Under the pieces are notes generated by a model. The model worked only from the letters and a program-made list of their open reading frames with translations. It was not told where the DNA came from and did no database searches. Both the position numbers and the translations under genes were made by a program. A stretch of 64,000 bases of DNA from Archangium lipolyticum (lineage in GTDB: Bacteria; Myxococcota; Myxococcia; Myxococcales; Myxococcaceae), in assembly GCF_024623785.1 (NCBI RefSeq), contig NZ_JANKBZ010000006.1, positions 310,001 to 374,000 on the forward strand, in the 5' to 3' direction. Positions 11,892-46,899 of this stretch are shown one piece after another. Every line of letters starts with the position of its first letter. The first letter of the stretch is position 1.

Positions 11892-12644
11892 TCAGCGCAG
11901 CAGCCGCTCGAAGGTGATGACCCTCAACGCCACGAAGGTGGCCACCGCCGCGCCCACGGTGAACAGCGCGGAGAGCAGCAGCGCGGTGAGGGTGGGGCCC
12001 GGTACCGCCACCATGGCGAGGAAGCAGACGAGGATGATGGGGCCGATGAACAGCCCATTGATGTTGTTGGCCGTGCGGAAATCGCGCGCCAGCAGGCTGA
12101 CGAGCAGCGCACTGGTGGTGGAGAAGGCCAGCGACGTCAGCAGCTCCAGCAGGAGCGCCAGCACGAAGCCGGGCGAGCCCACGCGCAGCCCGAGGATGAG
12201 CGCCGCGTCGACGGTGAAGAGGACCAGGGTGACGGCCGAGGCCAGCGCGAGCAGGGCCAGCAGCTTGGCGAGGAGGATCTGCCCCACGCGCACCGGGAGC
12301 GCCACCAGCAGCTCGAGCGTGCGCGACTCGCGCTCGGTGATGAGGATGTAGCTGGCCGTCGCCGAGGGCACGATGAGCCCGCCGAGCGCGATGAACGGAA
12401 CCAGCATGGCCCGCATCATGGCCACGGGGTCCTCCGCGAGCTCACGGAGACCCGGGGGCAGCTCCACGCCGGGCGGAAGGTTCACCGGCTTCATGGCTCC
12501 ACTCTTCAGCCCGAGCATCTGCACGCCTGGGATGATGACCAGCAGCAGCACGGGCAGCAGCAGCGCCGTCAGCATGGCGCCCCGGCTGCGCAACAACTGA
12601 CACCACTCCTTGCCGAAGAGGATCCGCACCTCACGCGCGAACAT
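11892..12644 (-). CDS. ABC-2-type transporter permease
   Basis: 250 residues from ATG 12644, which has GTGGGGGCC in front; an ATG 18 bp upstream is possible. There are about six transmembrane helices, the first near SRGAMLTALLLPVLLLVIIP and the last near TVGAAVATFVALRVI. After a periplasmic loop, a conserved ITERESRTLELLVALPV segment is typical of ABC-2 exporters such as NatB. It overlaps the ATPase gene by 14 bp, so the two subunits are translationally coupled. The exported substrate is unknown. Confidence 0.87.
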   Translation of the reverse strand: MFAREVRILFGKEWCQLLRSRGAMLTALLLPVLLLVIIPGVQMLGLKSGAMKPVNLPPGVELPPGLRELAEDPVAMMRAMLVPFIALGGLIVPSATASYILITERESRTLELLVALPVRVGQILLAKLLALLALASAVTLVLFTVDAALILGLRVGSPGFVLALLLELLTSLAFSTTSALLVSLLARDFRTANNINGLFIGPIILVCFLAMVAVPGPTLTALLLSALFTVGAAVATFVALRVITFERLLR

Positions 12645-13587
12645 CGTTGGCCCCCACGACATCCAGGAAGAGGTCCTCGAGGCTCGGCGTCACCACCCGG
12701 CACTCGTAGACATCGATACCCTCGGCGAGCAGCCCGCGCAGCAGCTCGGGCGCCTGGGCCACCGCGTCCGCCACGTGCACGCGCACGGCGTCCTCCTCGC
12801 GAGTGGGCGAGTTGCCCCGGGCGGAGAGAGCCTGGAACAACCGCTCGGGGCCCTGGGCGGCGCGCAGCACGAGCACGGGCTGGATGCGCTGACGCAGGGT
12901 GGCGATGCGCTCGTGCAGCAGCACCCGGCCCTGGCGGAGGATGACGGCGCTCTCACAGAGGGCCTCGGCCTCGGCGAGGTTGTGCGTGCACAGCAGCACC
13001 GTGCGGCCGGGCATCACCTTGCGCAGGAAGGTGTGCACCTCGCGTGTGGCGACGGGATCCAACCCCACCGTGGGCTCGTCCAGCAGCAGCACCTCCGGCG
13101 AGGAGACGAGCGCGGCGGCCATGGACAACCGGCGCTGCATGCCCCCAGACAACTCCGCCATCCGCCGCGAGCGGAAGGAGGCCAGACCAAAAGCCTCCAC
13201 CACCTCGGCGATGTTCCCGCTGCCGTACAGGTCGCGCACCAGCTGGAGGTAGTCATCCACCGTGAGGTCCCGGTACATGCCCGGGGACTGGGGGACGATG
13301 CCCACACGCCGCTTGGCCTGGAGGAAGTCGGGGTCCTCGACGCCGAGACCAAAGAGACTCACCCGTCCGGACGAGGGCCGGAGGGCGCCGGTGAGCAGGC
13401 GGATGAGGGTCGTCTTCCCCGCGCCATTGGGACCGAGCAGACAGGCCCGCTCGCCGAGGGCGATCCTGAAGCTGACCTGATCGAGCGCCTGAATGCCTCC
13501 GGGATACACCTTGGTGACCTCGGAGACCTCCAGGGGAACGTGAACCTTCTCCGTCAAGCGGCCGACCTCCCCTCGGGGGGCGGACAT
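12631..13587 (-). CDS. ABC transporter ATP-binding protein (ABC-2 exporter)
   Basis: 318 residues from ATG 13587. Walker A GPNGAGKT, Q-loop VGIVPQSPGMY, signature ELSGGMQRRL, Walker B VLLLDEPTVGLDP, and the His switch in LLCTHNLAEA. The ~90 residues after the cassette form the small C-terminal domain found in drug/sodium exporter ATPases (NatA/CcmA/DrrA group). It pairs with the overlapping permease. A REP-like palindrome and about 117 bp separate it from the divergent CULT gene. Confidence 0.92.
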   Translation of the reverse strand: MSAPRGEVGRLTEKVHVPLEVSEVTKVYPGGIQALDQVSFRIALGERACLLGPNGAGKTTLIRLLTGALRPSSGRVSLFGLGVEDPDFLQAKRRVGIVPQSPGMYRDLTVDDYLQLVRDLYGSGNIAEVVEAFGLASFRSRRMAELSGGMQRRLSMAAALVSSPEVLLLDEPTVGLDPVATREVHTFLRKVMPGRTVLLCTHNLAEAEALCESAVILRQGRVLLHERIATLRQRIQPVLVLRAAQGPERLFQALSARGNSPTREEDAVRVHVADAVAQAPELLRGLLAEGIDVYECRVVTPSLEDLFLDVVGANDVRA

Positions 13588-13646
13588 ACCACGCGAGCCC
13601 GGGCTTGCATCCGGCCACGCGCATGGGCAAGAGCAGTCGAGAAGAG

Positions 13647-13681
13647 TCCCCTCTCCCTCTGGGAGAGGGACAGGGTGAGGG
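13647..13681 (-). repeat. REP-like palindromic element, copy 1
   Basis: On the minus strand it reads CCCTCACCCTGTCCCTCTCCC followed by a GGGAGAG arm that pairs with CTCTCCC. It lies in the gap between the divergent ABC ATPase and CULT genes. Confidence 0.75.
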
Positions 13682-13704
13682 TCTACCTTCCGTTCATCCG
13701 AGCC

Positions 13705-14133
13705 ATGAATCCGTCCCGCTGGCCAAGGCAGTCCCCTGAAACACGGCGGCTCAAGGGAACGCCGACCGTTCCCACCGGGAACACGCCCGCCAGCCAGGCG
13801 AAGGAAGACACCGAGTCCCGGGCCCCGGAAACACCGCTGTGCTGCGCGCGCTGCGGCCACGTCATCACTCGCGAGCGGGACCGCACCACCGTCAACGGCC
13901 GGCACACGCACACGCGCGTGAACCCATCCGGGTTCGTCTTCCACTTCGGCTGCTTCGCGAGGGCCGAGGGCTGCCTCGTCATCGGCCCGCCCACCGCGGA
14001 GGCGAGCTGGTTCCCGGGCTTCGTCTGGGAGTACGCCAGGTGCGCCGCCTGCAAGACGCACCTGGGCTGGGCCTTCCACGGCGAGAGCGACTTCCTCGCC
14101 CTCATCCTGGACAAGCTCACCGCGCCGAGCTGA
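13705..14133 (+). CDS. Single-domain CULT (cereblon thalidomide-binding-like) protein
   Basis: 142 residues. After ~44 disordered residues comes a near-perfect CULT domain. Zinc ligands are C47/C50 (CARCG) and C113/C116 (CAAC). The tri-tryptophan cage is W102, W108 and W122 in SWFPGFVW...HLGWAF, with exactly the spacing of human cereblon W380/W386/W400. NPSGFVFHFGCF matches the central strand of the fold. In eukaryotes this pocket binds thalidomide and C-terminal cyclic imides on degradation substrates. The bacterial role is unknown; recognition of a uracil- or imide-like ligand or damaged protein C-termini is possible. No Lon-like domain or signal peptide is present. The Shine-Dalgarno is weak, and a later start before C47 cannot be excluded. 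Confidence 0.9.
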   Translation: MNPSRWPRQSPETRRLKGTPTVPTGNTPASQAKEDTESRAPETPLCCARCGHVITRERDRTTVNGRHTHTRVNPSGFVFHFGCFARAEGCLVIGPPTAEASWFPGFVWEYARCAACKTHLGWAFHGESDFLALILDKLTAPS

Positions 14134-14142
14134 GCGCCGCCA

Positions 14143-15315
14143 TCACCTCGCCGATGCCTCCTCCAGACCCCGCTGCCGCAACCGCCGCAGGCGAGTGAGC
14201 ATCTCCTCTGGGAGCGCATCCCGGAGCACGCCTCGGGCCGTGCGCTCCAGCGCCTGGGCACGCACGACCCAGTCGCCGAGACTCGCCGGCCGGGTGATAC
14301 GCAGGCGCACCGTCGTCCGGAGTCCCCGAGTCCAATCCGACTTGTACGCCTCGACGCCGCGCAGGAAGTCGTACTCGGAGAACCCCTCGGCCAGCGCATC
14401 GCGGAACGTCTCGCCCACGAGGACGAGCCCCACGCTCCGCGCCTTCCACTCGGGGTCGTATCCCGCGTTGTAATAACTGAAGGTGCGCCCGTGCAGCAGG
14501 GCGTAGACCGACGCCACCGCCCTGCCCTCCACGGACAGGAGGTAGATGCGGACCTTTCCCTCCGCCGACAGGAGCGGCACCACCGCGCGGTGGAACTCCT
14601 GGACGTCCGGCGCATCGAGCGAGCTGCGCCCTCCCCACCGCAGGGCGTGCAACCGGAAGAACTCGGGCAGCGCGAGGGCGAGCGCCTCGGGGTCCTCCGC
14701 CTTCGTGATGGCGAAGCCCTTCTGCCGCTCGAGCCACTTGCGGCGGCGCAGGAAGTTGTCGGCCCGGGCGACGCGCGCCAGCAGGGAGTCGAAGCTCTCA
14801 CCCACCTCGAAGGCCTCGTACGGACAGCGGTTCCGCCCGGTGCTCTCGAGCTGCCACCCCTGGGCCCCGCAGAGCGCGCGCAGGAGCGCCACGGTGGGGG
14901 ACGTCTCCTCCATGTCAGCCAGCTCCAGGATGTCCCACTCGCGCCAGGTCCTCGCGAGCGCATCCACCAACGCCTCGGTCAGGGCCGCCTCGTCCCCGGG
15001 CCGGAGGATGGCATCGAGGTAGTCGCTCCCCACGCCCTCATCCCCCAGGAACCGGAGCCACCGGAGGCGGGCGCCGCCCCACCGCTGCTCCTCGATGGAG
15101 AGCGGCAGCACTCCAGCGAGCCCGCCCGCCTCGTCCCGCGCCGTGAGGATGAAGAGCCTCCGCTCCCGCCCGAAGTGGAGATGCCAGCCGAAGAGCCACT
15201 CCCAGGTATTGAAGACGCGCGCCCGGCCGGACCCGCACAAGCGCCGCCACTCGTCCCGGAGCGCCAGGAAGCCCCGCGTGTCCCGCACGATGTCCACCGT
15301 CCAGCGGCCGTTCAT
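14143..15315 (-). CDS. FemAB/BioF2-like GNAT acyltransferase
   Basis: 390 residues. ATG 15315 overlaps the stop of the upstream DegT-like gene (ATGA). The order MNGRWTVDIVRD, FNTWEWLFGWHLHFG, LRWLRFLGDEGVGSDYLD, then the acyl-CoA-type core IYLLSVEGRAVASVYALLHG and YNAGYDPEWKARSVGLVL fits the CelD/BcsL-FemAB group of GNAT enzymes found in exopolysaccharide clusters. It likely transfers an acyl or aminoacyl group to a sugar precursor. It is the last gene of the three-gene polysaccharide set. Confidence 0.8.
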   Translation of the reverse strand: MNGRWTVDIVRDTRGFLALRDEWRRLCGSGRARVFNTWEWLFGWHLHFGRERRLFILTARDEAGGLAGVLPLSIEEQRWGGARLRWLRFLGDEGVGSDYLDAILRPGDEAALTEALVDALARTWREWDILELADMEETSPTVALLRALCGAQGWQLESTGRNRCPYEAFEVGESFDSLLARVARADNFLRRRKWLERQKGFAITKAEDPEALALALPEFFRLHALRWGGRSSLDAPDVQEFHRAVVPLLSAEGKVRIYLLSVEGRAVASVYALLHGRTFSYYNAGYDPEWKARSVGLVLVGETFRDALAEGFSEYDFLRGVEAYKSDWTRGLRTTVRLRITRPASLGDWVVRAQALERTARGVLRDALPEEMLTRLRRLRQRGLEEASAR

Positions 15316-17851: not shown

Positions 17852-18883
17852 TCAGCCCTTGCCGAGGAATCCCTCCAGCACTCCAGTGACATTCGTGCCG
17901 ATGTCCTCGACGGCATAGCCGCCTTCCTGCACGAACACCGTCGGCACCTTCAGCGCGGCCAGGCGCTGGCCCATCAGCGGGTAGTGGTGGGTGGAGAGCT
18001 TGAAGGCGCTGATCGGATCGCCCTCATAGGTATCGACGCCGAGCGACACCACCAGAGCATCGGGCGAGAACCCGCCGAGGACATCCATCGCCGCTCCCAG
18101 CGCGGAGCTGTACTCCGTCCAGGTGGTGCCGCGCGGCAGCGGAAAGTTGCGGGTGTAGCCCTCGCCTGCCCCGCCCCCGCGCTCGTCGGCATAGCCGAGG
18201 AAGTACGGGTACTCGGTCTCCGGGGTGCCGTGGATGGACACGAACAACACGTCCGAGCGCTCCCAGAAGATGTCCTGGGTGCCATTGCCGTGGTGGTAGT
18301 CCACGTCCAGCACCGCCACCCGGGCGAACCCCTTGTCGCGCAGGTGCTGCGCCGCCAGGGCGGCGTTGTTGAGGAAGCAGTAGCCGCCGTAGACGGAGTA
18401 CCCGGCGTGGTGTCCGGGCGGACGGCACAGGGCGTAGGCGCTCTTGTCGCCCTCGGCGACCCACGCGGCGGCGGTCAGGGCGCACCGGGCGGCGGCGAAG
18501 GCGGCCTCCCAGGTGCCCTCGACGATGGGCGTGCTGGCGTCGAAGGCGTAGTAGCCCATCTTGCCGTTGATGCCGGACGGGATGTGGTCACGGCGCAGGG
18601 CGCGGGCCGGAAAGCCGCTCGGCAGCATGAAGCCTTCCTTGCCAGCCGCCCGCCACTCGTCATGGGCGGTGCGCAGGAACTCGACGAACCCGGCGTCATG
18701 GACTCGCAGGAGCGACTCCGGTGCGAAGGGGCGCGGCTCGTGTACCTCGAACCCCACGCGCTCCACCGCCTTCAGGATGTAGTCCACGCGCACCGGCATC
18801 TCGAAGCACGGCACCAGCTCGCCGCGGTGCAGTTCCTTGCCACCATCGTGGCGAGCGTGCAGCGGGGAATGGACGACTTTCAC
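17852..18883 (-). CDS. Histone deacetylase / acetylpolyamine amidohydrolase family protein
   Basis: 343 residues from GTG 18883, chosen because GGAGGTTCCCCG precedes it. Zinc-hydrolase signatures: RPPGHHA (active-site His pair), YCFLNNAALAAQ, DVDYHHGNGTQ (zinc Asp and His), LGVDTYEGDP (third zinc Asp) and QEGGY (catalytic-position Tyr). The MPVRVDYIL and HEPRPFAPESLLRVHD opening resembles bacterial acetylpolyamine deacetylases more than eukaryotic HDACs. It is likely cytoplasmic. It lies 97 bp after larC on the same strand, with no obvious functional link. Confidence 0.9.
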   Translation of the reverse strand: MKVVHSPLHARHDGGKELHRGELVPCFEMPVRVDYILKAVERVGFEVHEPRPFAPESLLRVHDAGFVEFLRTAHDEWRAAGKEGFMLPSGFPARALRRDHIPSGINGKMGYYAFDASTPIVEGTWEAAFAAARCALTAAAWVAEGDKSAYALCRPPGHHAGYSVYGGYCFLNNAALAAQHLRDKGFARVAVLDVDYHHGNGTQDIFWERSDVLFVSIHGTPETEYPYFLGYADERGGGAGEGYTRNFPLPRGTTWTEYSSALGAAMDVLGGFSPDALVVSLGVDTYEGDPISAFKLSTHHYPLMGQRLAALKVPTVFVQEGGYAVEDIGTNVTGVLEGFLGKG

Positions 18884-18980
18884 CGGGGAACCTCCACTGG
18901 CCGAAGACCGACGGGCTCGCGCGAACTCTGACAAGCACACCGTGGGGAGCGCAAGACCGGACGCCCCCGGAGGCGGCTGC

Positions 18981-20182: not shown

Positions 20183-20216
20183 CCCTCACCCCGTCCCTCT
20201 CCCGGAGGGAGAGGGG
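20183..20216 (+). repeat. REP-like palindromic element, copy 2
   Basis: CCCTCACCCCGTCCCTCTCC followed by CGGAGGGAGAGGGG, a hairpin-forming copy in the larB-larC gap. It is transcribed through in the minus operon. Confidence 0.75.
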
Positions 20217-46864: not shown

Positions 46865-46899
46865 CCCTCACCCCGCCCCTCTCCCAGAGGGAGAGGGGG
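46865..46899 (+). repeat. REP-like palindromic element, copy 4
   Basis: CCCTCACCCCGCCCCTCTCC followed by CAGAGGGAGAGGGGG, hairpin complete. Lies between the histidine kinase stop and thiL. Confidence 0.75.

What the first reader, a model, noticed from the sequence alone, without database searches (positions are those of the whole stretch)
13705..14133. A bacterial stand-alone cereblon CULT domain with a complete drug-binding cage
The 142-residue protein keeps all three cage tryptophans (W102, W108, W122) at the exact spacing of human cereblon W380/W386/W400, plus the zinc ligands C47/C50/C113/C116. There is no Lon domain and no ubiquitin system. CULT proteins are known in some bacteria but have no assigned role. 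A neighbour link to the ABC exporter is not obvious.
Basis: partly seen in the sequence, partly recalled or inferred. Interest (0 to 1): 0.82.

Follow-up and report, generated by a model that had tools for sequence, protein, structure and literature searches.

The report
Myxobacterial stand-alone cereblon-type CULT protein
The gene encodes a genuine bacterial version of the thalidomide-binding part of human cereblon, a kind of protein already known in bacteria but without a known job; its relatives give two modest new clues, a conserved tail motif and, in distant cousins, a neighbouring protease gene.

Summary
Window 13705-14133 (+) encodes a 142-residue stand-alone CULT domain. Its best solved relative is the Magnetospirillum cereblon-like protein MsCI4 (E 6e-22), and human cereblon is found at about 1e-12. 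W102/W108/W122, C47/C50/C113/C116, N73 and E99 match cereblon exactly. The reading frame is under purifying selection.

It is a new member of a kind described in 2014-2015. That work already named delta-proteobacteria and Haliangium, and MsCI4 has been crystallised with thalidomide, deoxyuridine and a cyclic-imide degron peptide.

It is single-copy where found, in 44 of 190 Myxococcota genomes. The gene tree mostly follows taxonomy, suggesting vertical descent with repeated loss. In Archangium it is a lone gene back-to-back with an ABC exporter; neighbours differ elsewhere, so that link is local synteny.

Two new clues. (1) The N-terminal tail holds a fixed L-K pair 29-32 residues before the zinc site in 19 of 19 related sequences. 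(2) In one deep clade, CULT lies 0-2 genes from clpA, convergent, in four genera; they are the only families shared by all four neighbourhoods. A damage-reader/protease-adaptor role becomes testable, but is not shown. Predicted structures were too weak to test cage geometry.

The parts
13705..14133 (+). CULT-domain gene, 142 aa, single copy in the genome
13705..13833 (+). N-terminal tail (residues 1-43), proline- and charge-rich, judged disordered; holds the conserved L16-K17 pair
13750..13755 (+). codons of the conserved L16-K17 tail motif
13834..14130 (+). CULT domain proper (residues 44-142)
13843..13854 (+). first zinc-ligand pair C47-x2-C50
14008..14070 (+). cage segment W102 ... W108 ... 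C113-x2-C116 ... W122
13588..13704 (.). 117-bp region between the divergent ABC-ATPase gene and CULT; contains a palindromic repeat at 13649-13669 found at two other places in the window
12631..13587 (-). ABC exporter ATPase (DrrA-like), divergent neighbour; not judged functionally linked
14143..15312 (-). GNAT/FemAB-like acetyltransferase, convergent neighbour; not judged functionally linked

Best explanation
A cytoplasmic, zinc-pinned beta-tent (CULT) domain whose three-tryptophan cage binds five- or six-membered cyclic imides and imide-like rings. Established for the family, inferred for this protein: the ligand imide hydrogen-bonds to the backbone at positions 100 and 102, with F124 at the cage base as in human cereblon. 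Inferred: the physiological ligand is a C-terminal cyclic imide left on proteins by chemical damage at Asn or Gln, so the protein is a damage reader. More speculative: its tail tethers it to a partner, plausibly an AAA+ protease such as ClpAP, so that the marked protein is degraded, a ubiquitin-free counterpart of cereblon. The domain identity is near certain (about 0.98), the cyclic-imide reader role about 0.4, and the ClpAP hand-over about 0.15.
For: Homology to MsCI4 (E 6e-22) and human cereblon. Cage and zinc residues in 44 of 44 Myxococcota hits found by profile. E99 (MsCI4 Glu76, human Glu377), N73 and F124 also match (numbering). MsCI4 is solved with an aminoglutarimide degron peptide, 8bc7. 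No signal-like hydrophobic segment is seen in the tail. The tail has an L-K pair in 19 of 19 sequences at a spacing of 29-32, against 2.1 expected in shuffles, with the surrounding tail variable. In four genera of a deep Myxococcota clade CULT lies 0-2 genes from clpA; clpS was called beside clpA in two of the four. CULT and ClpA are the only families common to all four neighbourhoods. The genome here has a ClpA above its curated cut-off.
Against: No ligand binding was or could be measured here. The ClpA link is confined to one clade; elsewhere, Archangium included, CULT lies by unrelated genes. The pair is convergent, so not an operon. The four genomes share ancestry, so their linkage is not four independent events. 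ClpA is common in genomes that lack CULT, so CULT is at most an accessory. The tail motif is conserved among relatives within one family.
Confidence: 0.4

Rival explanations
1. A binder or sensor of a small metabolite: uracil, uridine, dihydrouracil, hydantoin or another imide-like ring, acting in pyrimidine salvage or signalling rather than on damaged proteins.
For: MsCI4 binds uracil and uridine and is solved with deoxyuridine and hydantoin. An adenosine-deaminase-family neighbour occurs in one relative, L094.
Against: No recurrent pyrimidine-metabolism neighbour was seen among the neighbours scanned. No fused effector or DNA-binding domain; the domain stands alone.
Confidence: 0.25
2. A scavenger or self-protection protein for imide-containing natural products (glutarimide antibiotics or aspartimide peptides) made or met by myxobacteria; the divergent ABC exporter would fit.
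For: Divergent ABC exporter next door in Archangium; within the family the gene tends to occur in the larger genomes.
Against: The exporter link exists only in Archangium and one near relative; no biosynthetic partner gene was seen to recur near CULT.
Confidence: 0.1
3. An enzyme of the beta-tent superfamily (as MsrB or GFA are) that processes an imide or a small electrophile.
For: Shared fold with MsrB and GFA (PMC4287342); a weak MsrB match.
Against: Conserved residues are mainly the cage and the structural zinc ligands; no turnover is known to me for any CULT protein.
Confidence: 0.07

Closest known systems
MsCI4 (MGR_0879), Magnetospirillum gryphiswaldense cereblon isoform 4
   Same: Stand-alone bacterial CULT domain of similar length; 40% identical over the core; same cage and zinc ligands
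   Different: Base of the cage is F124 here, as in human cereblon, where MsCI4 has Tyr101; the tail here carries the L-K motif of its family
Human cereblon CULT (thalidomide-binding) domain
   Same: Cage spacing, zinc ligands and the equivalents of N351, E377, H397 and F402; 34-36% identity
   Different: No Lon domain or DDB1-binding region, so no ubiquitin ligase link; small insertions in the human loops
Haliangium ochraceum and other delta-proteobacterial CULT proteins (Lupas et al. 2015, PMC4287342)
   Same: Same group: single-domain bacterial CULT proteins, mainly delta-proteobacteria
   Different: No genomic-context analysis was found in that paper (no hit for 'operon' or 'genomic context')
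ClpS adaptor
   Same: Works like (hypothesis only): small degron-binding domain with a disordered N-terminal tail; neighbour of clpA in the linked clade
   Different: Unrelated fold and a different degron (N-terminal residues)

Membership tests
CULT domain (bacterial stand-alone group) | Three cage tryptophans with spacing 6 and 14 | tested here: met
CULT domain (bacterial stand-alone group) | Two CxxC zinc-ligand pairs | tested here: met
   (sequence only; zinc not measured)
CULT domain (bacterial stand-alone group) | Significant sequence similarity to known CULT domains | tested here: met
   6e-22 to MsCI4, about 1e-12 to cereblon
CULT domain (bacterial stand-alone group) | Protein consists of the CULT domain alone | tested here: met
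   only a 43-residue tail outside the domain
CULT domain (bacterial stand-alone group) | Beta-tent fold with formed cage geometry | tested here: inconclusive
   AlphaFold2 models have mean pLDDT 54 and 60; best PDB matches are cereblon (E 3e-6), but VIA Z is 4.8 at 3.8 A over 61 residues, too poor to judge cage geometry
CULT domain (bacterial stand-alone group) | Binds thalidomide, uridine or cyclic imides | not testable with these tools
   needs purified protein
Cereblon (E3 ligase substrate receptor) | Lon domain | tested here: not met
   142-aa protein with no Lon match
Cereblon (E3 ligase substrate receptor) | DDB1 binding, ubiquitin pathway | not tested
   no such region in the protein; ubiquitin genes not searched for
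Clp protease adaptor (works-like hypothesis) | Binds an AAA+ unfoldase and delivers substrate | not testable with these tools
   only gene-neighbour evidence in one clade
Yippee/Mis18 (PF03226) | Pfam gathering score | tested here: not met
   19.6 bits against cut-off 26.6; expected for a CULT relative

The most novel reading that the evidence does not exclude
Bacterial CULT proteins are ubiquitin-free adaptors: the cage reads C-terminal cyclic imides on damaged proteins, and the conserved tail hands them to ClpAP or a related AAA+ protease, so cereblon's degron-reading role would predate its ubiquitin role.
Probability: 0.15. Interest if true: 0.9.

Novelty: new member of a known kind. Interest (0 to 1): 0.42.

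Why it matters
The role of bacterial CULT proteins has been open since 2014, although one is a workhorse for cereblon drug design. If they read C-terminal cyclic imides for a bacterial protease, it would tell what cereblon's pocket evolved for and offer a bacterial route for imide-based targeted degradation. The clpA neighbour and the tail motif make that directly testable; neither came up in the papers searched (open-access library only).

Tried and rejected
No relatives in phage, plasmid or viral-contig collections, so not a mobile or phage gene as far as searched. ABC exporter as partner: rejected, since the pair is present only in Archangium and one near relative. Other clade-specific neighbours (T2SS-type ATPase-FHA-CULT-GNAT; zinc ribbon; PHP domain; NADAR; CorA; SUFU; peptidase S46) show no common theme. 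The Hyalangium-group AAA gene that first clustered with ClpA is not ClpA (287 bits against a 993-bit cut-off) and is not counted. Reaching other phyla failed: 'of' does not accept a named E. coli locus, and the three phyla tried through handles held 1, 7 and 3 genomes without a match. The predicted structures were too weak for a geometric overlay. The single genome-contig scan returned only near relatives.

Full report
CHECK OF THE OBSERVATION. The ORF at 13705-14133 (+) is as described: 142 residues, with W102, W108, W122 and C47, C50, C113, C116. phmmer against PDB sequences gives MsCI4 (4v32) at 6e-22 and human or mouse cereblon at about 1e-10 to 1e-13. Using the numbering in PMC8900816, W102/W108/W122 are Trp79/85/99 of MsCI4 and Trp380/386/400 of human, and E99 is Glu76/Glu377. 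F124 is the human-type residue where wild-type MsCI4 has Tyr101.

The frame is coding. Over the domain dN/dS against nine orthologues is 0.10-0.39, and each antisense frame would change more residues than the sense frame. The ATG at 13705 is shared by the closest orthologues. An in-frame GTG at 13675 lies just beyond a palindromic repeat that occurs at two other places in the window. That region folds no better than shuffles (z -0.44), so no RNA element is claimed.

DISTRIBUTION. The window lies in a 12.6-Mb genome, with one copy of the gene. The nearest named relatives are Archangium lansinium (85%) and A. violaceum (80%). In the same family 27 of 96 genomes have the gene, and in the phylum 44 of 190, one copy each. 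It is absent from many complete relatives. The gene tree mostly groups copies by taxonomic family, which favours vertical descent with repeated loss over recent transfer. No copy was found in phage, plasmid or viral-contig collections. A wider search that also took in genomes of other phyla (handles later shown as 'same domain') gave no hit outside Myxococcota. Whether it sampled the alpha- and gamma-proteobacteria or the spirochaete in which CULT is published could not be told, so prevalence outside the phylum was not measured.

CONSERVATION. All 44 loci found by profile keep both CxxC pairs and the three tryptophans. The regular expression used to cut out the cores demands them, but no profile hit failed it. 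Across 45 bacterial sequences N73 is 98%, P74 98%, H119 98%, G121 100%, and position 124 is Phe in 40 and Tyr in 4. PMC4287342 reports that the well-conserved CULT residues group around the ligand site, apart from the zinc cysteines.

TAIL. Residues 1-43 are rich in Pro, Thr and charged residues and have low predicted confidence. An L-K dipeptide occurs in the tails of all 19 Myxococcaceae sequences compared, always 29-32 residues before the zinc site; shuffled tails average 2.1 and never exceed 8. The flanking columns vary. The 19 were chosen by eye, leaving out five family members (L082, L083, L084, L088 and the L089-L092 group) whose tails lack the exact pair; some of those and some distant copies show similar pairs (L-L, F-K, L-D, L-R). 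The sequences are related, so descent explains part of this, but two fixed residues in a variable tail suggest a binding motif or a lid. PMC4449219 notes that the N-terminal extension of full-length cereblon folds along the binding site. PMC9663308 reports that the disordered ClpS tail engages ClpA (abstract).

NEIGHBOURS. In Archangium and one near relative the gene is flanked by an ABC exporter (divergent) and in most of them, on the other side, by a GNAT/FemAB-like gene (convergent). In the Pyxidicoccus-containing genus it lies in a same-strand row after a T2SS-type ATPase and an FHA protein and before a GNAT enzyme. Other clades differ again. No neighbour is shared across the family, so the exporter is not a conserved partner. 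Genes were called with a home-made codon-bias caller, so small genes and starts are approximate.

CLPA LINK. In four genera of a deep clade (G130, G132, G134 of family f11, and G141 of f14) CULT lies 0-2 genes from clpA and points towards it. Three of the ClpA proteins exceed the NCBIfam ClpA cut-off; the fourth is cut by a contig end. Genes matching ClpS lie beside clpA in two of the four. A blast of all genes in the four neighbourhoods finds only CULT and ClpA common to all four; one other family is clearly shared by two of them. A fifth CULT-bearing genome, G137, cannot be judged because its contigs end. G136 has clpA without CULT. The class of G134 held only f11 genomes, so f14 appears to belong to another class, yet its ClpA groups with those of f11 at full support; common descent, transfer or a binning error are all possible. 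CULT-bearing genomes of these outlying families have ClpA in 10 of 11 (the exception is 75% complete), but so do 8 of 11 without CULT, which is weak evidence. The Archangium genome has ClpA on another contig.

STRUCTURE. The models have mean pLDDT 54 (full length) and 60 (domain). Foldseek still ranks cereblon structures first (E 3e-6), and VIA gives Z 4.8 at 3.8 A over 61 residues.

FUNCTION. Solved MsCI4 complexes include thalidomide, deoxyuridine, hydantoin and an aminoglutarimide degron peptide. Human cereblon's natural degron is the C-terminal cyclic imide (PMC13001092). The most likely role is therefore reading cyclic imides on damaged proteins, with uracil-type metabolites as the main rival. 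The hand-over to ClpAP is a hypothesis resting on one clade's gene order and a tail motif.

VERDICT. Real, correctly described, and a new member of a known kind. Interest comes from the open question of bacterial CULT function and from two leads that make it testable.

Noticed in passing
window 13649-13669, 20195-20215, 46877-46897: A palindromic repeat (CCCTCTCCCTCTGGGAGAGGG and near copies) occurs at three places, far above chance; it looks like a dispersed intergenic repeat.
   Followed up: partly
L109:4595-6521 (+): A NADAR-domain gene overlaps the start of a divergent-sequence CULT gene by 4 bases, with a HAD-like hydrolase 41 bases after it; possibly an operon in that lineage.
   Followed up: no
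L068:5784-10586 (+) and six related loci: Same-strand row of T2SS-type ATPase, FHA protein, CULT and a GNAT enzyme, conserved in seven genomes of one genus.
   Followed up: partly
G151:C105:27903-28181 (in L105): The CULT match carries one in-frame TAG inside the matched stretch: decay, a sequencing error or an edge effect.
   Followed up: no
window 17852-18940 (-): Histone-deacetylase-family protein (PF00850) close to a polysaccharide deacetylase and a nickel-insertion protein.
   Followed up: no
G131, G133, G139: Three Myxococcota genomes at least 96% complete have no ClpA match at E 1e-200, and none of them has CULT.
   Followed up: no
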